Assembly (NCBI GenBank): GCA_913055635.1
Contig: CAJXLK010000004.1
Coordinates: forward strand, 1-64,000
Length of the DNA stretch: 64,000 nt
Source of the DNA: an uncultured Bacteroidota bacterium
GTDB lineage: Bacteria; Bacteroidota; Bacteroidia; Bacteroidales; UBA12077
Direction of reading: 5' to 3'
Below, one piece after another: positions 37,912 through 52,208 of the stretch. Under the pieces are notes generated by a model. The model had not been told where the DNA came from and ran no database searches. It saw only the letters and a program-made list of their open reading frames with translations. The position numbers were made by a program, and so were the translations under genes. Each line of letters starts with the position of its first letter. Positions within the stretch are counted from its first letter, which is position 1.

Positions 37912-38373
37912 ATGGATAAATTTCTGAAATATTTTGAAACATTAATCATTTGGGGCATCATCCTGCTCATGGCCATCATTCTGGTCCTGGCGTTTTTAGA
38001 CATTCTATATGTAATCCAGCGGGAAATCACCTCCTCTCCGACACTGGTGATTGATGCCAACGGCCTGATGGGATTGTTCAGCCTTTTCCTGGTTCTTTTG
38101 ATTGGACTGGAGTTGCTGCAAACCGTCAAAACCTATCTAAGGGAAGACATTGTCCATGTTGAATTTGTCGTGCTGGTGGCCATCATTGCCATTTCGCGGA
38201 AAGCGATTGTATGGGATTTCGACAAGTATTCCACCGAAGAACTGATCAGTCTGGCGATCATGATACTGGCCCTGGGCGGGACCTATTTCCTGGTAAAAAA
38301 GTCAGGGGGGTGCAAAATCGGCGGCAAAAAGTGTGAAGAGGAGGACGACCAGGGACAGTCGAATGAAGAATAA
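37912..38373 (+). CDS. PsiE-family membrane protein
   Basis: This 153-residue protein has four predicted helices. The pattern resembles PsiE, a small membrane protein family linked in other bacteria to phosphate starvation (LEVLIIWGIILL-type first helix, FLVLLIGLELLQTVKTYL, VEFVVLVAIIAISRKAIVWDF). The C terminus is cytosolic, charged and contains CKIGGKKCEEEDD. No Pho box is identified and its role here is open. Confidence 0.78.
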   Translation: MDKFLKYFETLIIWGIILLMAIILVLAFLDILYVIQREITSSPTLVIDANGLMGLFSLFLVLLIGLELLQTVKTYLREDIVHVEFVVLVAIIAISRKAIVWDFDKYSTEELISLAIMILALGGTYFLVKKSGGCKIGGKKCEEEDDQGQSNEE

Positions 38374-38570: not shown

Positions 38571-39284
38571 ATGAAACAATATTACTTCACCGATGGTCAG
38601 CGTCGATACGGGCCGTTTACCTATGAAGCCCTCCAGGAGCAAAACATCACCCATCAGACCCTGGTATGGTATCCCGGGCTGGATAACTGGACTCCGGCGG
38701 GGGAAACGGAAGAGCTACAATCCCTTTTTGCAGTTAAACCTCCGCCCCTGGATAATTTAGGGGATACCCCAGGACAGGAGGCATCGGACAGGGAGGAGAG
38801 CGAATCCGGGGATTCGGGGCCCGGGCAACAACCTTCGCGGCAAGGCGGGGCAAAGGATCAAAAGGCTCCATCTCACGAGCCGGGGCCCGGACAGGCCCCT
38901 CAGCGCGCCGCGGCTCAAAGTCAAACCACCGGGAGACAGGGACTCCAGGGGTCAGCCAGTCAGGGGCAGCAAGCCGGTTTTGGCGGGAACCGCACGGCAG
39001 GTAGCTCCTTCCAACAGACCCCGGGCGGACCCCCAACCCCTCCCAAAAGCTGGCTGGTCGAATCCATCCTGGTGACCCTCTTTTGCTGCCTGCCTTTTGG
39101 CATTGCCGGCATTGTCAATGCCTCCAAAGTAGAATCCCGATTCCATGCCGGAGACGCCCCCGGAGCTGAGCGGGCCTCTTCCCAGGCCAAAAAATGGACC
39201 CAAACCGGTTTCTGGATCGGATTGATCGCAGGTATCATCTATGTACTGGCCATTGCCATCGGCGGAGGTTCCTCCTATTATTAG
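38571..39284 (+). CDS. DUF4339 (GYF_2) plus CD225/dispanin-type membrane protein
   Basis: The protein is 237 residues. An N-terminal GYF_2/DUF4339 domain (about 1-52, MKQYYFTDGQRRYGPFTYE and WYPGLDNWTPAGE) is followed by a long low-complexity linker rich in Gly, Gln and Pro (about 55-155). The C-terminal CD225/dispanin region has two helices (VESILVTLFCCLPFGIAGIV and FWIGLIAGIIYVLAIAI). The domain combination is common in bacteria but of unknown function, perhaps a membrane-anchored protein-interaction module. The next gene overlaps or follows immediately. Confidence 0.82.
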   Translation: MKQYYFTDGQRRYGPFTYEALQEQNITHQTLVWYPGLDNWTPAGETEELQSLFAVKPPPLDNLGDTPGQEASDREESESGDSGPGQQPSRQGGAKDQKAPSHEPGPGQAPQRAAAQSQTTGRQGLQGSASQGQQAGFGGNRTAGSSFQQTPGGPPTPPKSWLVESILVTLFCCLPFGIAGIVNASKVESRFHAGDAPGAERASSQAKKWTQTGFWIGLIAGIIYVLAIAIGGGSSYY

Positions 39285-39300
39285 AAAAAACGGCAAACGC

Positions 39301-39654
39301 ATGCTGGTGATGCTCCTGGTGGCAGGGGGCATCATCATTTACGGGATGTTTGACCCCGCTCAAACGACTTTTTTTCCCCCCTGCCCTTTTCGGGAGCTGA
39401 CCGGCCTTAAATGTCCGGGATGCGGCTCCCAAAGGGCCATTCATCACCTGCTGAACCTGAACATCCAGGCCGCTCTCTCACACAATGTCGCTATGGTCCT
39501 GTCCATTCCCTATATCATCTTCGGAGCATTCCTGGATTGGAAAAAACCTATATCTAAAACATGGCGAAAATGGCGCCAAAGACTTTATGGCGAAAAGGCC
39601 ATATACATGGTGCTGTTCTTAATCCTCTCTTTCTGGGTGATTCGAAACATTTAA
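39301..39654 (+). CDS. DUF2752 membrane protein
   Basis: The protein is 117 residues from ATG 39301 and belongs to the DUF2752 family. The conserved core is CPFRELTGLKCPGCGSQRAIHH, with a CPGCG motif between the membrane helices. A start at 39241 would overlap the dispanin gene by 44 bases and is less likely. The function is unknown. The pairing with a dispanin-type gene is recurrent in Bacteroidota and suggests linked roles. Confidence 0.78.
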   Translation: MLVMLLVAGGIIIYGMFDPAQTTFFPPCPFRELTGLKCPGCGSQRAIHHLLNLNIQAALSHNVAMVLSIPYIIFGAFLDWKKPISKTWRKWRQRLYGEKAIYMVLFLILSFWVIRNI

Positions 39655-40119: not shown

Positions 40120-41436
40120 ATGAAAAAATTAGCGCTGCTTATCATACCCTGGATCATCGTTATCGGCGCCTGCAAAAGATCGGGGAATCAGAACAAGGAG
40201 ACAGTGCCCGGGGCTGCTCCAAAAAAGGAAGAATTAAAAGCAGAACCTGCCACATCACCAGGAATTAACCGCCCCAATGTCAACCTTTACCTGGAGAATT
40301 CAGGCAGTATCTTTGGGTATATTAACCCCCAATCTTCGCAATATAAGCAAGCCATCAACGATCTTTATTTTTACCTCACTTCCAGGTGTGATACCATTAC
40401 CACATATACCATAAATGATGAAATCATCAACGAGGGGATCAACAACGACGGGTTCATAACCGGCCTTTCCAGGGCATCTCTGGAACAGGGGGAGCCTGGC
40501 AACAGCGACATTTTAGAGATGTTCACCCGCTCGCTCGAGGCGGTCAACCGCCATTCGGTTTCGATTCTTATTTCAGACGGCATATATGACATTAAAGATT
40601 ACACCATTGACAACCTTCAGACCAAGCAATCTCAGATCACCTACCGGGTTTTTATGCCCAACATAAAGGATCAAAATCTTCAAACCATTGTGGCCAAGAT
40701 GAGTTCTGAGTTCAACGGCACCTATTTTCCCTGTTGTGGATATGACCCGGTTCACATCCAGCAAAAAAGGCCTTACTATATCTGGATTTTCGGCAATGAG
40801 GCGACCATTCAGAAGACCCGAATCATCAGCCGCATCAATGAATTAGATGGGTTCCGCCACATTCATGAATACAGCCGCAACATTGGAGCCCCCAAATACT
40901 CGGTCATTCCTTATAATCAAAAGGGCTCTTATCAGAATGATTTTGACCTGAGTGAACTGGAGGCGCCCTTTTGCAATGCGGTTTCGGATGCCCAACCCGC
41001 CCATGGGGGAGCGTCCAAAGGAGAATTTCATTTCTCAGTAGCATTGGATCTTTCCGGTTTTCCCATTGACAAGGATTATTACCAAAACCTGGATAATTAT
41101 GAATGCACGGGGGGATACCAAATAGAAGAAATCGTCAGTGGCCAGGAACTGGAGGGTATTCCCAACGGGCGGCTTTATCCTTTTGAGCGGGGGGAAGTCA
41201 CCCATCTGGTGACCTTCTCCAAGAGCGGGAATCCCTGGCGGGAAGTTCATCTGCGCCTGAAAGAAAATATGCCCCAATGGATCCAGGCCACCCACAGCGA
41301 CCAGGACCATCACATTGAGGGCGATACCAGCCACACCATCGGGTTCAGATACCTGATGCAGGGCATTGACCAGGCATATAACCGGGCTACTGAAAGCGAT
41401 TATCTGTTCGACGTGACCATCGACATCAATCAATAA
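40120..41436 (+). CDS. vWA-like lipoprotein, first gene of the cluster
   Basis: The 438-residue protein has a lipoprotein signal ending VIGAC (C18), so it is envelope-anchored. The fold resembles a von Willebrand A domain. NVNLYLENSGSIFGY (about 53-67) sits where the DxSxS metal site would be, with Glu59 in place of the first Asp. SILISDGIYDIK (148-159) matches the fourth-strand motif. A second half (about 250-438) has beta-rich sequence without recognised motifs. It may bind a ligand or partner outside the inner membrane. The next gene starts 10 bases after the stop and all eight genes point the same way. Confidence 0.7.
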   Translation: MKKLALLIIPWIIVIGACKRSGNQNKETVPGAAPKKEELKAEPATSPGINRPNVNLYLENSGSIFGYINPQSSQYKQAINDLYFYLTSRCDTITTYTINDEIINEGINNDGFITGLSRASLEQGEPGNSDILEMFTRSLEAVNRHSVSILISDGIYDIKDYTIDNLQTKQSQITYRVFMPNIKDQNLQTIVAKMSSEFNGTYFPCCGYDPVHIQQKRPYYIWIFGNEATIQKTRIISRINELDGFRHIHEYSRNIGAPKYSVIPYNQKGSYQNDFDLSELEAPFCNAVSDAQPAHGGASKGEFHFSVALDLSGFPIDKDYYQNLDNYECTGGYQIEEIVSGQELEGIPNGRLYPFERGEVTHLVTFSKSGNPWREVHLRLKENMPQWIQATHSDQDHHIEGDTSHTIGFRYLMQGIDQAYNRATESDYLFDVTIDINQ

Positions 41437-41446
41437 AACTTTAGAT

Positions 41447-41851
41447 ATGAACAATTTTGGCGCCATGCTTTACGAATGGATCGTCTATGATCCGGTCTAT
41501 TCAGGACATATGTTCACCAACGGGCATTATGCAGGGCCTGCACTGGCAGTGATTCTCATCCCGCTGCTAGCCGCTGTGGTTTTCTACTACATCTGGAACC
41601 CCTTATACGGAGACTGGCAGCAATGGCTGCTAAGCATAGCGGGGGGGATGGTTGTAAGCGGCATAGTGGTGTACTCCCTGTTAAGTAACTACCTGGCCAA
41701 ATTCCTGGTTAATTCCAAGGAATACCCCAATGCAGGTGGTTACCAGTGGGAATTCACCCTGTGGTCCCTTTTGCTGGCCCTGATAGCGGGCATCATCTGG
41801 AGCTTCATCGTAAAATGGAAAAGCAGTAAAAACAAATATCAACCCCTCTAA
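41447..41851 (+). CDS. Small three-helix inner-membrane protein
   Basis: The 134-residue protein has predicted helices at about 30-50 (ALAVILIPLLAAVVFYYIW), 62-85 (LLSIAGGMVVSGIVVYSLL) and 105-125 (LWSLLLALIAGIIWSFIV). The N terminus is tyrosine-rich and the tail is lysine-rich, consistent with a cytosolic C terminus. I do not recognise a family. It could couple the envelope lipoprotein to the cytosolic tubulin-like and actin-like proteins. It starts 10 bases after the lipoprotein gene and ends 15 bases before the tubulin-like gene. Confidence 0.75.
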   Translation: MNNFGAMLYEWIVYDPVYSGHMFTNGHYAGPALAVILIPLLAAVVFYYIWNPLYGDWQQWLLSIAGGMVVSGIVVYSLLSNYLAKFLVNSKEYPNAGGYQWEFTLWSLLLALIAGIIWSFIVKWKSSKNKYQPL

Positions 41852-41866
41852 ACAACTCCTCAGCTT

Positions 41867-43363
41867 ATGGCCAAACTATATATCTTCTCAATCGGAGGAA
41901 CGGGTTCCCGGGTGCTCAAATCCCTGGCAATGATGCTGGCCTCCGGTGCCCATCAGGGTTCAGCTTTTGACACCATCGTACCCATCATCCTCGACCCCGA
42001 TGTCTCCAACGGCGATTTGGAAAGAACCCAGGATATACTGATGAAGTATCAGTTTCTTCAGAACTACGCCCAGCGAGACGGGGATGAAGACGACAATTTT
42101 TTTGGGCTCAAAATCAGAACCCTCGATCAGCTCTCGAATGACATGAACACCTCGGTGAGCAACCATTTCCGTTTTCAGTTTGGTCAGAAAACCGATGGTT
42201 CGTTCATGGATTATATCCACTACAATGGACTGAACCAGAACAACCAGGGGCTGATTGACCTTTTGTTCTCCAAAAAGACCCTAAATTCGAACATGGAAGT
42301 GGGCTTCAAAGGCAATCCCAACATGGGCAGCATCGTGCTGAATCAGTTTGCCGAATCGAAGGAGTTCGACATGTTTTACAGCACCTTTTCCCGCGGCGAT
42401 GCGGTATTCATCATCAGCTCGATTTTCGGTGGAACAGGAGCTGCGGGATTCCCCCTGCTGATGAAAAACCTCCGGGATGAGCAGGCCGACAATCCTTTTG
42501 CCAGCAACAATCCTGAGGTCAGTCAATCGGTGATCGGTGCGGTTAGCTTGCTGCCCTACTTTAAGGTCAACCCGGACGAAAACAGCCAAATCAACTCCAC
42601 CACGTTCCTGCAAAAGACCAAAGCGGCCTTGTCATACTATTCGGGGAACGTCACGGGCAAAAACGGGGTGGACTATTTTTATTACCTGGGCGATCAGGAA
42701 AGCGAAAACTCTTACGCCAATGAAGAGGGGGGTAAGAACCAACGCAACGATGCCCATTTCCTGGAGCTCTCGGCAGCCCTGAGCATCATTGATTTCATGC
42801 ACATTTATTCAAACGCCTCTAAACCAGAGGTGACTCAGGTCAAGGAATTCGGCATTGCCAGTGAAGGGGGCTCGTCCCTTCACTTTGATGACCTGGGGCC
42901 CGAGACTTTTCGGCGAGTGGTCCCGAACCTTTCCCGCCTGTTTTTGATGAACCTGTATATGGAACATGGCTTTGGTGCCCGAAAAACCCGGAAAGTTCAA
43001 TGGCAGCAGCCCCAAAACGGGGGAATATCGCTCAAAAAACTGGACGGCCAGTATCGCGATGCCCTTTACGGTTTCCTGGCCCACCTGCGGCAATGGCTAA
43101 AAGAGATGAAGGACAACAACGTGGCTTTTGCCCCCTTTCATATGGAACGAAATTTTTCCAACGCCCTGCAATTCATTGTCAACCATCCCCCGGAGAAAAA
43201 GGGTGTGGGTCAGCCCCCGGAATCCCTCAAATTGCTGGATGAATACAACATCAAGCATTTTCCCCCCATCAAAAAGGGCTATCAATCAGCCGAGACCAAA
43301 CTGCTGAAGCTATTTGAAAGCTCCACCAAAGAACTGATCAGGAACCACATTAAATTAAGCTAA
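41867..43363 (+). CDS. Tubulin/FtsZ-superfamily GTPase-like protein
   Basis: The 498-residue cytosolic protein has the tubulin-type N-terminal loop LYIFSIGGTGSRVLKSLAMM and a strand followed by Asp (VPIILDPDV). The diagnostic glycine-rich T4 loop is IISSIFGGTGAAGFP (G188-G191). This pattern matches the Pfam Tubulin_2-type bacterial families rather than FtsZ itself. A later FtsZ-like T7 catalytic loop is not obvious, so GTP hydrolysis or polymerisation is uncertain. It lies 2 bases before the actin-like gene, which suggests stoichiometric co-production. Filament formation or membrane remodelling is an inference. Confidence 0.82.
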   Translation: MAKLYIFSIGGTGSRVLKSLAMMLASGAHQGSAFDTIVPIILDPDVSNGDLERTQDILMKYQFLQNYAQRDGDEDDNFFGLKIRTLDQLSNDMNTSVSNHFRFQFGQKTDGSFMDYIHYNGLNQNNQGLIDLLFSKKTLNSNMEVGFKGNPNMGSIVLNQFAESKEFDMFYSTFSRGDAVFIISSIFGGTGAAGFPLLMKNLRDEQADNPFASNNPEVSQSVIGAVSLLPYFKVNPDENSQINSTTFLQKTKAALSYYSGNVTGKNGVDYFYYLGDQESENSYANEEGGKNQRNDAHFLELSAALSIIDFMHIYSNASKPEVTQVKEFGIASEGGSSLHFDDLGPETFRRVVPNLSRLFLMNLYMEHGFGARKTRKVQWQQPQNGGISLKKLDGQYRDALYGFLAHLRQWLKEMKDNNVAFAPFHMERNFSNALQFIVNHPPEKKGVGQPPESLKLLDEYNIKHFPPIKKGYQSAETKLLKLFESSTKELIRNHIKLS

Positions 43364-43365
43364 TC

Positions 43366-46300
43366 ATGGGCAAAGTATTCAGGATACACGAAGGATCAAA
43401 CCAGCCCCAGGACTGGTTCAACAGCCAGATGATCACGGCCAATCAGCTTCAAAATATCTCGACCGATCCCAAATCAGAAGGCAAAAACCTACCCACCTCC
43501 ATTCCAAGCCCTTTTGCAAGGCTTGAGCTGGTAAACAGTGCCTTTGAAACGGTGAACAATTCCCGCAATGAAAACGGAAATCCCCTGCTCGACGGAAACA
43601 CCGACTACCACAAACTGGTCTCCGATACTTTTGACATTGGCCAGATCTTCTTCAACTATCAAAAACTGGCCGATCACATTCAGATCCTGGCCTGGGACCC
43701 GTCGGAAGACCTGGAAAATTTGAAGAAATCTTCCAATCCCCAACATCAGCATATTGGCAAAACCCTTGATCTGTTTCTGCGCCAGGACGAGACCACGCTT
43801 AATTTCCAGAACCTAAACCGCATTTTCATCCTGGTTTATGACGGACAGGTGATCGGCGGGACCTCTCCCCTGACCGTTTTTGCCCCGGCCCCTGATGCCA
43901 GCCAGTTCCAGGGCAAACTGATGATGGGCCACGACCAGCTGCTGGATGAAAAAGGCCTGCCCCTGTATGAACGCGACCGCGAATACATCAAGTTCTGGTT
44001 TACCCTGGCCAGCCAACCCGGTTTTGCTGATAATTTCCGTAAAGTGGCCGATTACCTTCAAAAAACCAAAGACCTGATTCAAAATCACTACCCCGATTTA
44101 TTTTTTGAAATCAACCAAATCCAACCTGATGATCTGGAAAGCAATTATCAGAACATACCGGTCAATGACAGTCCAACCGATATTGTAGAGGTCAACAACA
44201 GCTTTCCGGTCAAGTGCCAGAGCATAGAAGACAAAAAGACACGGATTTCGAAGGAAAGCGATTTCACCATTGCATCGACCAAACCGGCCCCTTACTCCTA
44301 TCAGCCCCTTTTTTTGCCCACCGAGCGGTTTGAATACCCATGGCAATATACCGAAGACACCTGGCATCCGCAGACGGTGGTTGAGCAAGATCCGGGAACC
44401 CCCATTGAAGAAAGAATCCTTCCGGCCGATGGCACTCAGTATCCCTGGCTCACCGGCGAAGATTTCCTGGAGGAGAACCTGATCAAGTTGCCTTATGTCA
44501 TTGATGACTCCAAATACCTGGCCTTTGGCTCCAGGCAACACCTGCTTCCGTTAACCGACGTCTATTTCAGGTTCTTCAATAGCGATGACATTGACCAACA
44601 CATTCAAATGCAGGATCTGGCCGGAGGAGGCGTCCAGGTACAATTGTCCATTCCCCTGCGCAACGGGGAAACCCTGACCTATAAAAAAATCTACCACGGC
44701 TCGCAGATCCTCGAATACCAGGTCCACCTGGCCATATGCCCATTCATCAGCAATGTGGAGACCACCTACATTGCCGGGCTGATCAATGAAAAATACAACC
44801 TGGATTTCCATGCCTACAACACCCGTGAAAACCTCACCCCGGCCAAACAGAACAATCGGGTGCGCAAGCCCCGCGGCATGAAGAGTCAATACCATCAAGT
44901 CAGCGGGGCCTACGACGCGGTAAAGGTACAAATCAATGAAGGTGAAGCCGAGGGCTATGTCATTCCCAAACTCCAGACATACCGGCAGGGAGATGACAAA
45001 TACCGCTTTGCCGTTGACTTCGGCACCACCAATACCCACATCGAATATTCGGTGGACAGCGATAAAAATGCCCGGGCTTTTGACATCAAAGCCTCGGAAA
45101 AATTCCTGGTCAGCCTCCAGGATAAAGATGCCAGCGAATCCCGTTGGCAGCGGGATGAAAAAATCATCTTCAAGGATATGTTCCCCGAAGTGCTCAATGA
45201 TCAAACCCTGGAGAACTTTCCTACCCGTTGTGCCCTGACCACCAGCAACACCTACGACATCCATCAACAGATGGAGGTCTTCCTCGATGCCAATATCTCG
45301 TTCTATTATGAACGCGAACATATCGCCCATTCGAAAGCCCTGACCAACATCAAATGGAGCGATTATGAGAATCCTGAAAAACGCAAGGCACTGAACCTGT
45401 ATATCAAAAACATCCTGTTGCTGCTTTATTACAAAGTGCTGGCCAACAACGGGAACCTGCACGCCACAGAGGTCCGGTGGTTTTATCCCACCACCATGTC
45501 CAAGGCCAAGCGCAATACCCTGCAGCAAACATGGAAAGAAATGTTCCAGGAAGTCTTTGGCTTTGAACCTCAGAAACATTCGCTGATCAATATCCCGGAA
45601 AGCATCCCGCCCTATTACTATTATCGTTACAACCGAAACGTGTTGGGCCTGACCGTGGCCATTGACATCGGCGGGGCTACTTCTGATATATCGGTCTATA
45701 AAGAAAATGAGCCTCAGTTCATCTCATCGGTCAAGTTTGGCGGAGAAGCCCTTTACGGAGACGGATACGGAGGCAGCCCCCAGAACAACGGTTTTTTTAC
45801 CCGTTACAAGGAAAAGGTGGATCCGATCCTGGAGAAGCTCAGCAACGATGACCGCAATACCAGGCAAATACTGGAGAATATCATTCAAAACCAGAACGAG
45901 TCGGTTGAATTTTGCAACTTCCTGTTCTCCCTCTCGAAGAGGAAGGATGTCAACTTCGACTTCCTGAAGGAATTAATGAATGATGCCCAACTGAAACTGA
46001 CCTACTATATCTTTTATTCAGCCCTGGTTTATTATATTGCCAAAACCATGAAAGGAAAGGGGTTTGCCCTTCCCGAATACATTCTCTTCAGCGGTTCGGC
46101 CTCCAAATCCCTGTCGGTTTTGGATCCGGACGAAAATAAAGAAGAAAGTTCCCGCTTTTTCAGCCACATCTTTGCTGAGGTATATGGGCAGGAAGAGATT
46201 CCGGACATGCAAGTGAAGCTGGTTTCGGAACCCAAAAAGATCACCAGCAAAGGAGGACTTCAAAACAACATCGAATCCGAACGCCCGCGCATCCTCAATT

Positions 46301-46668
46301 GGCTTGGAGGTCAAAAGGACTACAACATGCTGATCAGCGACCAGTATGATCAGAGCCTGCCGACTTATGAAGATATCAATGACAACGTGCTGAACGATGT
46401 GCTCAGTTCCATAACAGATTATTATCAAATGAGCGACCGGATTTTCCAGCAGGTCCGGGCCGAAGATACCTTCGGAATCAGCGGCAAAGCTTATGAAATT
46501 TTCCGGGAAGAGCGGGAAAAATCACTTTATAATTTCCTGAAAGAAGGTATACTGGAAAAAAGAAAGGAATTGGAGAAAAAGGACAATCCCATTGAGAACA
46601 CCCTTTTCTTTTATCCCTTAATTGGGGTCTTAAATCGAATCTCTTATTCAACGGTAACCAAATCCTAA
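43366..46668 (+). CDS. Giant protein with C-terminal actin/Hsp70-like ATPase fold
   Basis: The 1100-residue cytosolic protein has an N-terminal half (about 1-540) that matches no family I know. The C-terminal half is an actin/Hsp70-superfamily ATPase. Phosphate-1 loop FAVDFGTTNTHIEY begins at F548. Phosphate-2 loop VAIDIGGATSDISVY includes D767, with G769-G770. The adenosine motif YILFSGSASKSLSVL is near G910. It probably binds and hydrolyses ATP and may polymerise or act as a chaperone-like switch. It is directly downstream of the tubulin-like gene. The extended N terminus may interact with the membrane partners. Confidence 0.85.
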   Translation: MGKVFRIHEGSNQPQDWFNSQMITANQLQNISTDPKSEGKNLPTSIPSPFARLELVNSAFETVNNSRNENGNPLLDGNTDYHKLVSDTFDIGQIFFNYQKLADHIQILAWDPSEDLENLKKSSNPQHQHIGKTLDLFLRQDETTLNFQNLNRIFILVYDGQVIGGTSPLTVFAPAPDASQFQGKLMMGHDQLLDEKGLPLYERDREYIKFWFTLASQPGFADNFRKVADYLQKTKDLIQNHYPDLFFEINQIQPDDLESNYQNIPVNDSPTDIVEVNNSFPVKCQSIEDKKTRISKESDFTIASTKPAPYSYQPLFLPTERFEYPWQYTEDTWHPQTVVEQDPGTPIEERILPADGTQYPWLTGEDFLEENLIKLPYVIDDSKYLAFGSRQHLLPLTDVYFRFFNSDDIDQHIQMQDLAGGGVQVQLSIPLRNGETLTYKKIYHGSQILEYQVHLAICPFISNVETTYIAGLINEKYNLDFHAYNTRENLTPAKQNNRVRKPRGMKSQYHQVSGAYDAVKVQINEGEAEGYVIPKLQTYRQGDDKYRFAVDFGTTNTHIEYSVDSDKNARAFDIKASEKFLVSLQDKDASESRWQRDEKIIFKDMFPEVLNDQTLENFPTRCALTTSNTYDIHQQMEVFLDANISFYYEREHIAHSKALTNIKWSDYENPEKRKALNLYIKNILLLLYYKVLANNGNLHATEVRWFYPTTMSKAKRNTLQQTWKEMFQEVFGFEPQKHSLINIPESIPPYYYYRYNRNVLGLTVAIDIGGATSDISVYKENEPQFISSVKFGGEALYGDGYGGSPQNNGFFTRYKEKVDPILEKLSNDDRNTRQILENIIQNQNESVEFCNFLFSLSKRKDVNFDFLKELMNDAQLKLTYYIFYSALVYYIAKTMKGKGFALPEYILFSGSASKSLSVLDPDENKEESSRFFSHIFAEVYGQEEIPDMQVKLVSEPKKITSKGGLQNNIESERPRILNWLGGQKDYNMLISDQYDQSLPTYEDINDNVLNDVLSSITDYYQMSDRIFQQVRAEDTFGISGKAYEIFREEREKSLYNFLKEGILEKRKELEKKDNPIENTLFFYPLIGVLNRISYSTVTKS

Positions 46669-46678
46669 ATCATTTGCT

Positions 46679-47923
46679 ATGAACCGGGTCATTATACTTT
46701 TTTTGTCAGGAATTTTTGTAATTACCCTCACAGGGGGCCATGCAAATGGCCAGGATACAAATAAAAGAAACACCTCGAACAGTTACATTATAGCCTGCAT
46801 GGTGGATGCATACATGCACGATTATTTTGAATATTTTAAAAATACCAGTAAAAACAATCTAACCCAGGAACAAAAGATTGCATTATCCCGGGAGCAACTT
46901 AGCTTTCAGAAAAAATTCATTTTGGGCAGGTCAAAGGGAAAACTTAAAAAGATGAGGCAATTCATCCAGGATAGTAAGTGGTCAAACAGAAGTGTTCTCA
47001 GCATCATTGATACCCTGGAAAATCATTTGAACAACAGCAGCGTTCCTGCTTCGAGAAAATTATCCTATCATTTTTCAGCGATTCAAAATCCGGATAATTG
47101 GAAGCAAGTAAGGGGTAAGATGATGGCTTTGATGCAACAAAAAGCCCCTGCTTCAACCCCACCCACAGCAGAGGAACAACAGAGAAAAACAGGTCCGGCT
47201 GTTGGAAGCCGACCCCAGACATCGGGCAACAGCAATAACCTGGCGACCTTCCTGCTAATTTTAATTTTGCTGGGTTTGGCGGCCATCATCATACTTTTTC
47301 AAAAGTCCAACCGAAAAATCCGGGAGATGGACGAACGTCTGGAATCGGTTCGTGACAGGTACAATCAGTTCAATCAGGCGCGCCAGACACAAAAGCTGGA
47401 AGAAAGGCTCAGCGAGATTTCCCGTCAAATGAATGATCAGATTCAACAGGTAATCAACAAAATGGACCAAATGGAAAAAGAAAACCAAAAGAAGCCGTCT
47501 CAGGGCCAGCAAACCCCACCACCCTCGTCCGAGCAGCCGGTTAATAAGGAAGCACCCAAAAAGCCGGTTGATAAAGAAGCACCCCAAAAGCCGAAAAAAG
47601 AAAAAAACAAAATCGCCGAAAAATTCTTTGATGCCCCGCACAACAATGTTTTTGAATATGAAGAGCATAAAAGTGAACGCATCTATTACAGATTAAGGGT
47701 TAATGAGAAAAAGGGCGAAGGCGAATTTGATTTTTATCCGGGGGATAAATCGGCCAAAAATGTGGCCCTGGAGCAGCTTGACGATTACATCAAGCCAGCC
47801 TGCGAGATAGAAAACATCAACATGAACCATCCCCAGGATATCATCCCTAAGTCGCCGGGCAAGGTAGAAAAGAAGGACGGCCAGTGGGAGATTACCCAAA
47901 AGGCCAAGGTAAGGTTTTCATAA
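46679..47923 (+). CDS. Single-pass membrane coiled-coil protein of the cluster
   Basis: The 414-residue protein has a predicted signal peptide (MNRVIILFLSGIFVITLTGG) and a helical periplasmic domain (about 30-150). A membrane helix follows at 187-208 (LATFLLILILLGLAAIIILF), then a cytosolic coiled coil (about 212-265). A Pro/Lys-rich linker with repeated KEAPxKPxxK units leads to a folded C-terminal domain (about 315-414). The layout suits a scaffold that connects the periplasm to cytosolic filament or motor proteins. No family is recognised. The start ATG is 10 bases after the actin-like gene. Confidence 0.75.
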   Translation: MNRVIILFLSGIFVITLTGGHANGQDTNKRNTSNSYIIACMVDAYMHDYFEYFKNTSKNNLTQEQKIALSREQLSFQKKFILGRSKGKLKKMRQFIQDSKWSNRSVLSIIDTLENHLNNSSVPASRKLSYHFSAIQNPDNWKQVRGKMMALMQQKAPASTPPTAEEQQRKTGPAVGSRPQTSGNSNNLATFLLILILLGLAAIIILFQKSNRKIREMDERLESVRDRYNQFNQARQTQKLEERLSEISRQMNDQIQQVINKMDQMEKENQKKPSQGQQTPPPSSEQPVNKEAPKKPVDKEAPQKPKKEKNKIAEKFFDAPHNNVFEYEEHKSERIYYRLRVNEKKGEGEFDFYPGDKSAKNVALEQLDDYIKPACEIENINMNHPQDIIPKSPGKVEKKDGQWEITQKAKVRFS

Positions 47924-48019
47924 AAGCAAAGCAAGCCAAAGGAACAGGCAGGTGCTGGTTTTTACACTGTGGTCGTTTGGCAGGAACCTTTTCAAAGGAG
48001 CATTACAAAACGGAAAATT

Positions 48020-49747
48020 ATGACCAAATCACTCAAGGACATCATAAAAGAGAAGCCTTATCTGGTAGGGATCGCAATCATATTGATCTTTTTCATCATT
48101 GTTCTGATCGCTCAAAATCCGGGGATGGATTTCATCCATCAGATAGAAATATTTATGATTGCCGCCATCATTTTCTATCAGGCTATTTTTTCCTTCAATT
48201 TGGGCCGTGAAATCGAAGATCTGAAGCAGGTTTTTAAAGATCCCCCACAGACCCAGCAACTTGAGCTGAACAAAAACCCCCAGGAAATCCCTGACATACC
48301 TGCTTTTCTGGAAGGCAAATACCGCAACGAGATCTACGAGACGCTGAACGGGTATAAAGTCACTCTGCTGACCACCCCGCGCAATCCAACTTCCCGGCGT
48401 ATCTCCGATGCCATCAACAGTTATTTGATGAAAAATTACGGGGCCTCTACCAATTTCTCCATTGTCAAGGACATCATCGACCGGGAGATCAACAACAAAG
48501 ACGAAGGCATCAACAACTCCATCTCCATGCCCCTTTACCTGGGTCTGGCCGCTACCATGCTGGGGATTATATTTGGCCTGTTCTCAATCGACCTCTCCAA
48601 ATTGGGTGAATCGGCAGGTACTTTGGGCGACACCCATTTCATCCAGAACATCTCTTCGCTGATCACCGGGGTCAAAATCGCCATCATCGCCTCACTGTTC
48701 GGCATTGTATTTACCACCATCCTCTCGGTTTTCTGGTATAAGCCGGCCAAAAACAAGGTGGAAGAAGACAAAAATGAATTCATCTCTTACCTTCAGGCTG
48801 AACTTCTGCCTGAACTGCAAAAAAACGATGATCAAAGCATTGCTGCCTTAAACCGCAGCCTGGATGAATTTTCCAGAAGAGCTGTGGGATTGAACCAGTC
48901 GATCAACAACAGCGTGGAGCAACTCACCGAGAACATCCAAAAGGAACATCAGCTGGTTGAACAAATCAACAAGATGGATCTCCAGCAGGTCTCCAAATAC
49001 AACCTGCAGGTGGCCGATAAGCTGAATCCCACCCTTCAGCAGATCAACCAACTGTCGGAAAAGCTCACCAGCTTGAATCAATCCATTGAGACCATGGAAC
49101 GCCTCTCCCAGCAACTTTCCTACTTCGTGAGCAGGACCGATCAAATGGAAGAGATTTATAATGAGATCAATCGCAACTTAAATGAATCGCGAACCGTGAT
49201 CAACTTCCTGGACACCCACCTGGAAGAGATTAAAAATTCGGGAGACGAAGCCAATAAGGCGGTCAGCTATGCGCATGCCAGCTTCAAAGAGGCCATTGAC
49301 GAGCTCAAGAACAAAATCGATGAATCGTTTCAGCAGATCAACAACAATGCCACCACGGTGGATTCTCATCTAAGGGAAAAATTCAGCGAGGTCAATCAAA
49401 ACCTCCACACCATCGCCAACGATTACATTCAGAATTTTGAGCGTCAGTTTTCCGATTCGGTTCCCCGGCTGGAGAACCTCAACCGCCTGGGCGAGCTGGT
49501 CAATATGGGGGGAGAGATCACTGAGCATGTGCGCCATACCAGCACTCAAGAGATGCAGCAGATCAAGGGGGAACTTCGCAACATCAACCAGGCCCTCCAA
49601 AACAATCACCAGCCGACTGCAAACGATAACAACCAGCCAGGTGACAGAGGCAACCAACGGCGAAAGGTTCAGTTCATCCTGCAGGTGGCAGCCTATGGAA
49701 GCTTAATTGCCGCTGCAGCAACTTATGTAATTTATATGTTGAACTAA
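48020..49747 (+). CDS. MotA/TolQ/ZorA-like channel protein with coiled-coil tail
   Basis: The protein is 575 residues from ATG 48020; an upstream GTG at 47969 would add 17 residues without membrane sequence. Helices 1-2 lie at about 12-60. Helices 3-4 lie at about 168-242 with the MotA/ExbB-type pattern (SISMPLYLGLAATMLGIIFG and ITGVKIAIIASLFGIVFTT). A long coiled coil (about 275-540) follows. Unusually, the protein ends in another hydrophobic segment (QVAAYGSLIAAAATYVIYM). Such proteins form the pentameric stator of ion-driven motors. The tail recalls ZorA of Zorya defence. The MotB-like partner is the next gene. Confidence 0.82.
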   Translation: MTKSLKDIIKEKPYLVGIAIILIFFIIVLIAQNPGMDFIHQIEIFMIAAIIFYQAIFSFNLGREIEDLKQVFKDPPQTQQLELNKNPQEIPDIPAFLEGKYRNEIYETLNGYKVTLLTTPRNPTSRRISDAINSYLMKNYGASTNFSIVKDIIDREINNKDEGINNSISMPLYLGLAATMLGIIFGLFSIDLSKLGESAGTLGDTHFIQNISSLITGVKIAIIASLFGIVFTTILSVFWYKPAKNKVEEDKNEFISYLQAELLPELQKNDDQSIAALNRSLDEFSRRAVGLNQSINNSVEQLTENIQKEHQLVEQINKMDLQQVSKYNLQVADKLNPTLQQINQLSEKLTSLNQSIETMERLSQQLSYFVSRTDQMEEIYNEINRNLNESRTVINFLDTHLEEIKNSGDEANKAVSYAHASFKEAIDELKNKIDESFQQINNNATTVDSHLREKFSEVNQNLHTIANDYIQNFERQFSDSVPRLENLNRLGELVNMGGEITEHVRHTSTQEMQQIKGELRNINQALQNNHQPTANDNNQPGDRGNQRRKVQFILQVAAYGSLIAAAATYVIYMLN

Positions 49748-49765
49748 ACCCGTAAAAGGGCATCT

Positions 49766-50410
49766 ATGAAGTCAAAAAATCTGTTTTGGGTTAGCTATTC
49801 GGACATGATGACCAGTATGTTCTTCATTATGCTGGTTTTGTTTATCCTGGCCGTGGGCTATCTATACCTTCAAAAACGGGCCACCGAAGAACAAATACGC
49901 GAGATCAAGAACATTCAAACGGCTTTGCGCAATATACAGGATGAAGACTTCACTTTCAACCCGGAAAGCTATCGGTATTACCTGGATGCAGACATCAATT
50001 TCCCGAGCAATTCAGCCGATATCACCGACCTGGAACCCCATACCCGGGAAAGGTTAATTAACCTGGGCAACACCCTCTACAACTCGCTGGACAGCCTCAT
50101 CCATAAGAAAGAAAACATCAACTACCTGATGATCATCGAAGGCAACACCCAACGCTCGGATCAAAACTGGGAGCAAATTCCCAATGTAGGTTATAAACTG
50201 AGTTATCGCCGGGCACTGGCCCTTTTCAACTTTTGGAAAAACAAAGGCATCAATTTTTACAAGCTGGCCCCGCAATGTGAAGTACTGATCGCCGGGAGCG
50301 GTTATTTCGGGCAGTCCAGGGTGGAAGAGGAATGGAAAAACCGGCGGTTTACCATTCAAATCACCTCCAAGGTGGGCAAATATTTAAGCAACCAGACAAG
50401 CGCCAATTGA
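49766..50410 (+). CDS. MotB/ZorB-like OmpA-domain motor partner
   Basis: The 214-residue protein starts MKSKNLFWVSYSDMMTSM. D13 in a WxSxSDMMTSMFF context matches the proton-carrying Asp of MotB, ExbD and ZorB. One helix (about 14-36) precedes a linker and an OmpA-type peptidoglycan-binding domain (about 85-205; YLMIIEGNTQRSDQNW, SYRRALALFNFWKNKGIN, NRRFTIQI). AAAGGG lies five bases before the start. With the MotA-like gene just upstream it should make an envelope-anchored rotary or force-generating unit. Confidence 0.88.
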   Translation: MKSKNLFWVSYSDMMTSMFFIMLVLFILAVGYLYLQKRATEEQIREIKNIQTALRNIQDEDFTFNPESYRYYLDADINFPSNSADITDLEPHTRERLINLGNTLYNSLDSLIHKKENINYLMIIEGNTQRSDQNWEQIPNVGYKLSYRRALALFNFWKNKGINFYKLAPQCEVLIAGSGYFGQSRVEEEWKNRRFTIQITSKVGKYLSNQTSAN

Positions 50411-50486
50411 AGTGGCCGGATAAAAGGGATAGGAATAAATCACAGATATCGCATAAAGGAAAAAATAAGACCAACTCCGTTCAATC

Positions 50487-51317
50487 ATGGGGCGAAATAA
50501 GATTTTTTTGGCAATCATCGGGCTATCCGCGCTGATGCTCCTGAACCAGTGTTCAGGTTGCTCCAGGTCAGGGCGGGAAGAGCTGGCCGACCAGCAATCG
50601 GATCAGCAGCAGGCGGGCCAGCAACAGTCTGGCCACAGGCAACGCTCCGGTCAGGGGCAGTCCGTCCAGCCACAGATTGAGCAGGAGCCCGGCCGGGATA
50701 TGAATCAACAGCCGCAGGAAGAAATATCGGTTCCTGGCCCACCCCCGGGCAAAAAGAAGGGTGAAGCAAATGACCTGTCGAGCCTTTACAAGGAGTGCAA
50801 AAAGGCGGTGTTTCTAATTTATACCTCCGGAGGTCAGCAAACTTTCCAGGGATCGGGGTTCTTCATCAATGATAGAGGGGTGGCGGTTTCCAATTATCAT
50901 GTTTTTGAGGATACCCAGCAGGGAAAAGAGAGAATTTATCTGGACAGTGACCGGGCCTATAAGATTGAGCGGGTCCTGCGCAAGAACGAGCAATACGACT
51001 ACATCGTCTTTCGGGTGAACGTACCGGGGTCAACCCCCTACCTGGAGATTGCCGGGAGTTCTCCGGCCATTGGCGCAGAGGTCTTCACCATTGGCAATCC
51101 CAAGGGGCTGGAGCAAACCCTTTCTACGGGCATCATATCGGGCTACCGGAAAGAGAACAGGCTGCTGCAAACGACCACGGAAATTACCCACGGAAGCAGC
51201 GGCGGGCCTCTTATGAACATGCAGGGTCAGGTCGTGGGGATCACGACAATGGGCATGGGCGAGGCCAACCTGAATTTCGCCGTTAACATCAACCTGCTTG
51301 AGCTGTCTTTTCAATAA
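50487..51317 (+). CDS. Trypsin-fold serine protease lipoprotein
   Basis: The 276-residue protein has a lipoprotein signal (LLNQC, C22) followed by a Gln/Gly-rich linker (about 35-85). A chymotrypsin-fold domain (about 90-270) has the full triad: VSNYHVFE (H138), EQYDYIVFRV (D171) and THGSSGGPL (S238). PDZ domains are absent, unlike DegP-type proteases. As last gene of the cluster it may cleave an envelope substrate when the machine is activated. An alternative is a constitutive quality-control protease. The 76-base gap upstream is the second largest in the cluster, so its expression could be partly separate. Confidence 0.85.
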   Translation: MGRNKIFLAIIGLSALMLLNQCSGCSRSGREELADQQSDQQQAGQQQSGHRQRSGQGQSVQPQIEQEPGRDMNQQPQEEISVPGPPPGKKKGEANDLSSLYKECKKAVFLIYTSGGQQTFQGSGFFINDRGVAVSNYHVFEDTQQGKERIYLDSDRAYKIERVLRKNEQYDYIVFRVNVPGSTPYLEIAGSSPAIGAEVFTIGNPKGLEQTLSTGIISGYRKENRLLQTTTEITHGSSGGPLMNMQGQVVGITTMGMGEANLNFAVNINLLELSFQ

Positions 51318-51647: not shown

Positions 51648-52208
51648 ATGGCTTATATTCAAACAGTGGGCGAAAAAGAAGCGGAAGGCTTTCTCAAACA
51701 ATTGTACGGAACCATCATTGAAAGCAGGGGAAAAATAGCTGAATTGCATAAAATACAGAGTCTCCATCCCAAGAGCATTGTAAGCCACATGGATCTATAT
51801 ATGACCCTGATGTTCGGCAAATCGCCCCTTACACGTGCACAAAGAGAAATGATTGGGGTCATCGTTTCTTCAGAGAATGGATGCAGATATTGCGTAGCCC
51901 ATCATTCGGCTTCTTTAAGTCATTACTGGAAAAACAAACAGGTCATCAATCAATTTATAGAAGATTATACCAATGTGGGGCTCTCCCATAAAGACCTCTA
52001 TATCTGCCAGTACGCCCTTCACCTGACGCGCTACCCCAGGGATGAATATCAAAAGGAGTGGGTTGAAAAGCTGAAGGAAGCAGGTCTCTCAGACCGGGAA
52101 ATTCTGGATGTGAACATGGTAACTTCTTATTTCAACTTCGTCAACCGCATTGCCGCAGGTCTTGGGGTTGAACTGGAAGAAGACCAGGGAGAAGGCTACA
52201 AATACTAA
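51648..52208 (+). CDS. AhpD/carboxymuconolactone-decarboxylase-like peroxidase-related protein
   Basis: The 186-residue protein has the AhpD-like redox motif NGCRYCVAHHSASL (C79, C82, H85), which gives a thiol-dependent peroxidase-type site. Further family sequence is SPLTRAQREMIGVIVS. It is cytosolic and all-alpha. The substrate is unknown, though relatives reduce hydroperoxides or transfer electrons to lipoyl systems. It has its own promoter-like element and may respond to oxidative stress. Confidence 0.86.
   Translation: MAYIQTVGEKEAEGFLKQLYGTIIESRGKIAELHKIQSLHPKSIVSHMDLYMTLMFGKSPLTRAQREMIGVIVSSENGCRYCVAHHSASLSHYWKNKQVINQFIEDYTNVGLSHKDLYICQYALHLTRYPRDEYQKEWVEKLKEAGLSDREILDVNMVTSYFNFVNRIAAGLGVELEEDQGEGYKY

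What the first reader, a model, noticed from the sequence alone, without database searches (positions are those of the whole stretch)
40120..51317. Eight-gene cluster joining tubulin-like, actin-like and ion-motor proteins
Seen: eight co-directional genes, most gaps 2-18 bases (two larger, 76 and about 96). They encode a vWA-like lipoprotein, a three-helix membrane protein, a tubulin-superfamily protein with FGGTGAAG, a giant actin/Hsp70-fold protein, a coiled-coil membrane protein, MotA-like and MotB-like motor proteins, and a trypsin-fold lipoprotein. Known: Zorya defence uses a MotA/MotB-type motor, and tubulin-like families have been linked computationally to vWA proteins. Inferred: an uncharacterised envelope machine, perhaps a defence or membrane-remodelling system, in which cytosolic filaments and a proton- or sodium-driven motor control a protease.
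Basis: partly seen in the sequence, partly recalled or inferred. Interest (0 to 1): 0.93.

Follow-up and report, generated by a model that had tools for sequence, protein, structure and literature searches.

The report
Actin–tubulin–motor envelope conflict system
A block of eight neighbouring bacterial genes, met again in many Bacteroidota, appears to build an envelope machine that joins an actin-like protein, a tubulin-like protein and an ion-driven motor like that of the Zorya anti-phage system to exchangeable secreted proteases and nucleases, most likely for defence against invaders.

Summary
All eight genes are at the stated places. AlphaFold models compared with the PDB support a tubulin/FtsZ fold (Z 16.2) and an actin/MreB fold in about residues 544-973 of the 1100-aa protein (Z 19.6). 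The MotB-like family's best solved match is ZorB (8VVN, E 3.6e-15).

Of 90 loci examined (89 distinct), 76 have the five core genes vWA–TM3–TUB–ACT–CCM, all 76 in this order on one strand; 54 of them add MotA and MotB. At least 565 TUB relatives exist, yet only 13 of 395 phylum genomes match. A same-genus genome has the empty site.

New: the tail is exchangeable. A lipoprotein slot with a common leader carries trypsin (18 loci), retropepsin-like (18) or transglutaminase-like (4) domains. The next gene is a nuclease of one of three unrelated families in 26 of 78 loci, against 1 of 81 just upstream. One locus fuses trypsin and nuclease.

Best reading: a conflict, probably anti-phage, system with a Zorya-like motor and periplasmic effectors. 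Unproven: defence-island enrichment was not shown, no ZorC/D/E was found among the eight proteins, and the window copy has no adjacent nuclease.

The parts
40120..41436 (+). vWA-like lipoprotein (438 aa), probably periplasmic; MIDAS-like E59-N-S61-G-S63 and D153
   Evidence: ORF; motif conservation in 37 members; no Pfam hit in 37 of 37 members; family in 87 of 90 loci
41447..41851 (+). TM3: three-helix inner-membrane protein (134 aa)
   Evidence: helices read by eye; family in 84 of 90 loci
41867..43363 (+). TUB: tubulin/FtsZ-superfamily protein (498 aa), GGTG at 10-13 and FGGTG at 187-191
   Evidence: AlphaFold; PDB; conserved residues over 53 sequences; called in 88 of 90 loci
43366..46668 (+). 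ACT: 1100-aa protein, actin/MreB/Hsp70-fold domain in about 544-973; N-terminal half not assigned to a fold
   Evidence: AlphaFold; PDB; invariant D551, G553, T554, D767, G769, G770, D774, G910 over 50 sequences
46679..47923 (+). CCM: signal sequence, periplasmic part, one transmembrane helix, coiled coil, conserved C-terminal part; least conserved member among close pairs (candidate sensor)
   Evidence: topology by eye; family in 82 of 90 loci; median identity 56% in 46 pairs where TUB is 90% in 58 pairs
48020..49747 (+). MOTA: ZorA/MotA-like motor subunit with about 280 residues of cytosolic coiled coil
   Evidence: PADLOC ZorA 2e-7; MotA_ExbB 0.0028, below cut-off; alignment; family in 65 of 90 loci
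49766..50410 (+). MOTB: ZorB/MotB-like subunit, transmembrane Asp13 and OmpA-like domain
   Evidence: PADLOC ZorB 1.2e-14; PDB 8VVN_B 3.6e-15; Asp13 in 32 of 32 rows that have the position (2 of 34 rows start later); family in 59 of 90 loci
50487..51317 (+). Trypsin-fold lipoprotein, leader CSGCSRSGR, GSSGGP present; the exchangeable peptidase slot
   Evidence: Trypsin_2 1.6e-25; swaps; leader-type lipoprotein in 40 of 90 loci
38571..39284 (+). GYF_2/CD225 membrane protein, inside the segment absent from the same-genus genome; link to the machine not shown
   Evidence: Pfam; empty site
39241..39654 (+). DUF2752 protein, likewise inside the absent segment; link not shown
   Evidence: Pfam; empty site

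Best explanation
An inner-membrane conflict (most likely anti-phage) machine. Supported by sequence or fold: a ZorAB-like motor (MOTA with a long cytosolic coiled coil; MOTB with the membrane Asp and an OmpA-like domain), two proteins of tubulin and actin fold with intact nucleotide-site residues, two further membrane proteins (TM3, CCM), a vWA-like lipoprotein, and a lipoprotein peptidase whose catalytic domain is swapped between loci and which is often followed by a secreted nuclease. Inferred: CCM's variable periplasmic part and MOTB's wall-binding domain sense envelope damage or an incoming invader. Ion flow and the GTP- or ATP-bound state of TUB and ACT act as a switch that assembles or turns the complex. 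This licenses the lipoprotein peptidase, which acts in the periplasm either directly or by releasing the partner nuclease, so that invader DNA is cut while it crosses the envelope, or the infected cell is killed.
For: Core order in 76 of 90 loci, 54 with MotA and MotB; distant L108 has MotA- and MotB-like genes too. Motor closest to Zorya. One slot holds three peptidase folds: 18 trypsin, 18 retropepsin-like (DTGA in 18 of 18), 4 transglutaminase-like (Pfam on 1-3 of each). Nuclease at +1 downstream in 26 of 78 loci (23 co-directional), 2 of 65 at +2, against 1 of 81 at -1 and 0 of 334 at -2 to -6; families SNase, Exo_endo_phos, Endonuclease_NS. SNase background is 26 matches in 61 genomes. 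Trypsin–Endonuclease_NS fusion in L028. At least 22 peptidase-state and 16 nuclease-state changes on the TUB tree. Patchy: 13 of 395; with ACT 0 of 24 other same-genus and same-family genomes. Empty site. Decayed copy L109. TUB 92% identical between Cryomorpha and Halomarinibacterium.
Against: No function was tested. Flanks look mostly housekeeping; of 132 scanned only a few defence-type hits stand in the printed part of the lists (25 of 54 PADLOC and 25 of 108 Pfam families). In Spirosoma and Hymenobacter the locus has shared flanking genes, unlike a mobile island. No PADLOC system fits the set. 50 of 76 loci with the tail visible have none of the three nucleases there, the window included, and the window genome has no SNase. 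Nuclease only with MotAB (26 of 54 against 0 of 22, p 2.5e-5) is not significant once relatedness is allowed for (5 pairs). The 80 named loci are the best matches to the window, not a random sample. No background was measured for Exo_endo_phos.
Confidence: 0.55

Rival explanations
1. Envelope maintenance or membrane remodelling: TUB and ACT form membrane-attached filaments that, with motor force, shape or repair the envelope, and the peptidase and nuclease clean up periplasmic debris. This is the reading Makarova and Koonin gave for FtsZl1-vWA operons.
For: vWA, tubulin-like and OmpA-domain genes were predicted as membrane-remodelling operons in 2010 (PMC2875224, section 6 read, other passages). 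Shared flanks in Spirosoma and Hymenobacter. A kinase-like and response-regulator pair upstream in some loci, e.g. L026, L037.
Against: Rare and patchy, not found in 4 other same-genus genomes, repeated swapping of unrelated nucleases: a housekeeping role predicts neither.
Confidence: 0.2
2. A DNA-handling or scavenging machine: motor-driven uptake of external DNA or other polymers, degraded by periplasmic nucleases and peptidases.
For: Nucleases are the commonest tail genes after the peptidase; L031 carries a metallo-beta-lactamase plus helix-hairpin-helix protein, a combination recalled from ComEC/ComEA.
Against: No pore, pilus or TonB-type receptor family was seen among the 20 proteins scanned; 28 of 54 motor loci lack any of the three nucleases; peptidase swaps are not explained.
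Confidence: 0.12
3. A weapon or toxin-release system used against neighbouring cells.
For: Secreted nucleases and other secreted hydrolase candidates (Peptidase_C92 in L090, HH_signal in L097).
Against: Many effector leaders are basic, unlike the acidic surface-export signal recalled for Bacteroidota lipoproteins, so they probably stay in the periplasm; I recognised no delivery apparatus or immunity gene among the proteins scanned, but made no dedicated search.
Confidence: 0.08

Closest known systems
Zorya anti-phage systems (ZorA/ZorB motor)
   Same: MotA-type subunit with long cytosolic coiled coil, MotB-type subunit with membrane Asp and OmpA-like domain; solved ZorB is the best PDB match (8VVN; named as type I ZorAB in PMC11890865, whose abstract, passages and section 6 part 1 I read); exchangeable nuclease effector.
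   Different: No ZorC, ZorD or ZorE among the hits of the eight proteins; adds tubulin-like, actin-like and vWA-like proteins; effectors are secreted lipoproteins with SNase, Exo_endo_phos or Endonuclease_NS domains.
FtsZl1-vWA predicted operons (Makarova and Koonin 2010, PMC2875224)
   Same: Tubulin-superfamily GTPase, vWA protein, sometimes an OmpA-domain protein, membrane proteins.
   Different: In the passages read no actin-fold partner, MotA-type motor, peptidase or nuclease slot is described; their Additional File 6 was not available to me.
DO-GTPase/tubulin/HSP70/vWA systems and trypsin-NucA systems (Kaur et al. 2020, PMC7159879; passages)
   Same: Tubulin-like and Hsp70-fold partners, vWA proteins, interchangeable peptidases, trypsin with NucA endonuclease, also as a fusion. 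L017 carries a weak DO-GTPase1 match (7.2e-5, below cut-off).
   Different: No double GTPase among the window's eight proteins; the words MotA and ExbB do not occur in that paper's main text.
Kiwa and SNIPE membrane-embedded DNA-targeting defence (PMC12904381, passages)
   Same: Membrane-placed sensing of phage entry with a DNA-directed effector.
   Different: Not compared by sequence here beyond the PADLOC scan, which listed neither for the eight proteins.
Flagellar MotAB, ExbBD, GldLM motors
   Same: Ion-motor type with MotA/TolQ/ExbB-family channel.
   Different: MOTB scores higher against ZorB than flagellar MotB; MOTA's motor-region matches are weak throughout.

Membership tests
Zorya | ZorB-like subunit with conserved membrane Asp and OmpA-like (peptidoglycan-binding) domain | tested here: met
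   Asp13 in 32 of 32 rows with the position; 8VVN_B 3.6e-15; PADLOC ZorB 1.2e-14. Peptidoglycan binding itself not tested; below NCBIfam cut-off (19.7 against 400).
Zorya | ZorA-like subunit with long cytosolic coiled-coil tail | tested here: met
   PADLOC ZorA 2e-7; tail about residues 255-530 by eye. Part of the score is coiled coil, and NCBIfam ZorA models are far below cut-off (27 against 190).
Zorya | Partner effectors ZorC+ZorD, ZorE, or the type III set | tested here: not met
   No such family among the hits at E<=1 for the eight proteins; other window genes were not scanned with PADLOC.
Zorya | Protects against phage | not testable with these tools
   Needs a plaque assay.
Tubulin/FtsZ superfamily | GTPase fold with N-terminal GGxG and glycine-rich T4-type loop | tested here: met
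Tubulin/FtsZ superfamily | T7 catalytic loop (NxDxxD) and polymerisation | tested here: inconclusive
   No such motif seen by eye in alignment A1; polymerisation not testable here; motif recalled.
Tubulin_2 (PF13809) | Match above the curated cut-off | tested here: not met
   Window protein 17.8 bits against 27; 8 of 10 members match at E<=0.01, best 3.2e-9.
Actin/Hsp70/MreB ATPase fold | Two-lobed fold with phosphate-1, phosphate-2 and adenosine motifs | tested here: met
   (Z 19.6, 281 residues, 3.7 A); ATPase activity not tested; motif names recalled.
vWA domain | vWA fold with MIDAS DxSxS | tested here: inconclusive
   ExSxS instead, with conserved Asp; no Pfam hit in 37 members; fold not predicted.
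Kaur et al. DO-GTPase systems | Double GTPase gene beside tubulin/HSP70 | tested here: not met
   None of the eight window proteins matches it; only L017 has a weak match.

The most novel reading that the evidence does not exclude
A categorically new kind of immune machine: actin- and tubulin-family proteins, used as a nucleotide-gated switch, are coupled through an ion-driven Zorya-type motor to protease-triggered periplasmic nucleases, so that invading DNA is destroyed in the envelope before it reaches the cytoplasm, with a fast-changing periplasmic sensor (CCM) deciding what is recognised.
Probability: 0.35. Interest if true: 0.95.

Novelty: new variant of a known kind. Interest (0 to 1): 0.85.

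Why it matters
If the reading holds, both prokaryotic cytoskeletal folds work with an ion motor in one system, a combination I did not find in the papers searched, and Zorya-type logic reaches into the periplasm. The exchanged peptidase and nuclease slots give a clear, testable prediction (active-site mutants) and a way to find further effectors. At least 565 TUB relatives exist in sequenced species (80 looked at), several from named culture-collection strains, so it can be worked on now.

Tried and rejected
Plasmid and phage records: no TUB match in 50,697 phage records; 6 plasmid records match, one a 1.77-Mb Prevotella replicon, the others cyanobacterial. A phage origin was dropped.

Defence island: 132 of 186 candidate flanking proteins were scanned. 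The 54 left out were those beyond the first 150 printed and some that looked like operon tail; eight loci had been skipped before the draw. PADLOC at 1e-10 printed 25 of 54 families: mad2 (3 members) and methylases (2 members each). Pfam at 1e-8 printed 25 of 108 families: HsdM_N 2, HSDR_N 2, GmrSD_N 2, Eco57I 2, IS66 transposase 2, beside purine-synthesis and other housekeeping families. Families hit once may be hidden, and no background rate was measured; I claim neither enrichment nor its absence.

PDB profile searches for TUB, ACT and vWA were weak (best 0.12, 0.03, and a glycoside hydrolase at 0.022 for vWA); the two folds rest on AlphaFold models. The N-terminal half of ACT has no assigned fold: the listed alignments lie in 540-1080, which is not evidence of a new fold.

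The first label 'TRYP' for the 40 lipoprotein-slot members was too wide: the family was joined by its leader, and 18 carry the trypsin motif. The window trypsin's best PADLOC family is RT-Protease_XI (1.2e-20) and CCM's is PD-T4-6 (3.2e-4); I take both as shared domain or low-complexity resemblance.

Same-genus comparison: only G003 was informative. G001's downstream-gene relative (49% identical) sits in another context; G002 and G004 had no match to either flank query.

Odd hosts (Leptospiraceae L032, Gracilibacteria L046, Sulfuricurvum L097, Williamsia L035) are metagenome bins and may be misbinned; they stay in the counts, but I draw nothing from their names. L019 and L044 are the same region, the only near-identical pair; one search counts both (25 of 77 without L044), one search leaves L044 out. 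In one search the +1 hits of L076 (gene split in two) and L091 (115-aa fragment) are incomplete. L085 and L087 lack a called TUB although the scan found it there, so I blame my gene caller; therefore leave them out.

Literature: the searches (listings and abstract starts) showed no description of this combination; passages of PMC12904381 and PMC12505986 have none either. Preprints and most subscription papers are not held, so this is weak evidence of absence.
Full report
What is there. The eight genes exist as described. Of the eight proteins only the trypsin-fold one passes a Pfam cut-off, and none passes an NCBIfam cut-off. PADLOC, which has no cut-offs here, gives ZorB 1.2e-14 for MOTB, ZorA 2e-7 for MOTA and RT-Protease_XI 1.2e-20 for the trypsin.

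Folds. An AlphaFold model of TUB from 53 homologues (mean pLDDT 88.2, pTM 0.92) gives only entries of tubulin, FtsZ, CetZ, TubZ or PhuZ in the 50 Foldseek rows shown (best E 1.8e-4, TM-scores low at 0.23-0.30 of the query); the second aligner gives Z 16.2 to CetZ over 207 residues at 3.1 A. G10, G11, G13 and F187-G191 are invariant in 53 sequences and T12 nearly so. The ACT model (pLDDT 86.9) matches MreB, actin and DnaK (best E 9.1e-8), with Z 19.6 over 281 residues at 3.7 A in model residues 544-970. D551, G553, T554, D767, G769, G770, D774 and G910 are invariant in 50 sequences. Nucleotide binding and filament formation are inferred, not shown. The vWA reading rests on a motif and found no Pfam support in any of 37 members.

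Motor. A profile of 34 MOTB sequences finds 8VVN_B best (E 3.6e-15), then 8QYD_F (3.9e-9), then MotB entries from 3.1e-6. PMC11890865 (abstract, passages, section 6 part 1) lists 8VVN as Shewanella type I ZorAB and names the ion-carrying Asp of ZorB; an Asp at position 13 is present in all 32 rows that cover it, which I take as its equivalent. MOTA has about 280 residues of cytosolic coiled coil by eye. It is far below the NCBIfam ZorA cut-offs (27 bits against 190), and part of its score is coiled coil.

Conservation. All five core genes were called in 76, and in 76 of 76 they lie in the same order on one strand; 54 of the 76 have MotA and MotB, 32 also the lipoprotein. Several contigs end inside the cluster and the gene caller missed some genes, so these are lower bounds. 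Distant forms exist: L108 carries an OmpA-domain MotB-like gene, then vWA, TUB, ACT, CCM and MOTA relatives; a Gloeothece plasmid typed as mobilizable carries vWA, TUB and ACT relatives; L106 and L107 pair TUB with a large protein that the ACT model does not reach, with TerD-like and, in L107, OmpA-domain proteins.

Distribution. With the TUB profile 13 of 395 phylum genomes match at 1e-10, the window's own included; three of them are distant (E 1.5e-28 to 3.8e-36) and one (G448) is a decayed copy. With ACT as a single sequence, 9 of 395 match at 1e-6 and 3 of 59 relatives at 0.001, own included and one only over 38 residues; none of 4 same-genus and none of 20 same-family genomes does, some of these being incomplete. 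In G003, of the same genus, the orthologue of window gene 37912-38373 is followed directly by that of 51648-52208, 243 bases apart, with 75% and 74% identical DNA on the two sides. So about 13 kb, including the GYF/CD225 and DUF2752 genes, was gained or lost here; which of the two is not known. TUB is 92% identical between Cryomorpha (Cryomorphaceae) and Halomarinibacterium (Flavobacteriaceae) and 83% to Hydrotalea (Chitinophagaceae) (families). This suggests horizontal transfer, but I measured no housekeeping gene for comparison.

The exchangeable tail. The 40 lipoproteins grouped with the window trypsin often share a leader like CSGCSRSGR. By motif 18 are trypsins, 18 retropepsin-like (classed by their C-terminal motif; DTGA then found in 18 of 18) and 4 transglutaminase-like. 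Pfam agrees for those scanned: gag-asp_proteas in L096, L047, L035 (9.1e-16 to 2.1e-13), Transglut_core in L027 and L026 (about 3e-11), Trypsin_2 in L102, L028 and the window. Two Spirosoma loci without this lipoprotein have other peptidases downstream: a caspase domain in L100 and an M48 peptidase in L081. The gene directly after the cluster is an SNase, Exo_endo_phos or Endonuclease_NS relative in 26 of 78 loci (23 co-directional); 2 of 65 at +2, 1 of 53 at +3, 1 of 31 at +4, 0 of 25 beyond; upstream 1 of 81 at -1 and 0 of 334 at -2 to -6. The models used were built from clusters in these same loci; Pfam confirms two members of each family. Most start with a signal or lipoprotein-like leader by eye. 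SNase matches number 26 in 61 background genomes and Endonuclease_NS 18 in 61. In L028 trypsin and Endonuclease_NS are fused in one protein, and L031, L059, L090 and L097 show further hydrolase-type tail genes. On a quick TUB tree of 78 rows the peptidase state changes at least 22 times (100 shuffles: mean 35.2, least 31), the nuclease state 16 (24.6, 21) and the motor state 10 (20.6, 18): inherited in part, but often swapped. 'None' counts as a state there and may hide unrecognised domains. Nucleases occur only with MotAB (26 of 54 against 0 of 22), but after pairing by relatedness 5 pairs remain and the test cannot reach significance.

A fast-changing part. In pairs of loci with TUB 75-99% identical, median identity is TUB 90 (58 pairs), ACT 87 (55), MOTB 82 (22), TM3 81 (54), MOTA 74 (24), vWA 73 (49), lipoprotein slot 69 (17) and CCM 56 (46). 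The pairs differ between genes and many are Spirosoma, so only the contrast of CCM with TUB and ACT is firm. In Flavobacterium L036 and L076 TUB is 96% and CCM 40% identical, most different in its N-terminal, periplasmic half. This fits a recognition part, but linkers and coiled coils also change fast.

Reading. Sparse occurrence, swapped secreted effectors, a Zorya-like motor and the parallel with the trypsin-NucA conflict systems of PMC7159879 (passages) make a conflict role the likeliest. Many basic leaders suggest that peptidase and nuclease face the periplasm; the acidic surface-export signal of Bacteroidota lipoproteins is recalled, not from a call. The window copy has no nuclease next door, no SNase in the genome and one Endonuclease_NS match on another contig, so there the peptidase may act alone or on something unlinked. 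The case against stands in the Against line; the defence reading is held at 0.55.

Novelty. The parts were partly foreseen: FtsZl1-vWA-OmpA operons (2010) and tubulin/HSP70/vWA conflict systems (2020). I therefore file it as a new variant, although no description of this combination turned up. A categorically new immune machine is not excluded.

Noticed in passing
L028:17815-19218: Natural fusion of a trypsin-like peptidase (86-214) and a DNA/RNA non-specific endonuclease (250-453) in one lipoprotein of this cluster in Wenyingzhuangia.
   Followed up: partly
L109:5924-11413: Decaying copy of the cluster: TUB called in two pieces (one stop inside), ACT and CCM not found, MOTA, MOTB and the lipoprotein short.
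   Followed up: no
L106:986-13106 and L107:53-8455: Distant tubulin-like operons with a 1166-1301 aa partner and TerD-like proteins, in L107 also an OmpA-domain protein; possibly a sister system.
   Followed up: partly
L110:7881-17788: vWA, TUB and ACT relatives on a cyanobacterial plasmid typed as mobilizable (Gloeothece verrucosa).
   Followed up: partly
L026:5591-7892, L037:5569-7955: A TPR protein with a histidine-kinase-type ATPase domain and a response regulator lie just upstream of the cluster here and, by cluster label, in some other loci.
   Followed up: partly
window:38571-39284: GYF_2 plus CD225 (interferon-induced transmembrane family) protein inside the segment missing from the same-genus genome.
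   Followed up: no
L097:16640-17551: Hedgehog-type N-terminal signalling domain (2.2e-13) in the effector position of a Sulfuricurvum-labelled bin.
   Followed up: no
L055, L063, L071, L078 (cluster c21): A 510-600 aa protein follows MOTA, before MOTB in L055, L063 and L078; the L063 member has no Pfam match at 0.01.
   Followed up: no
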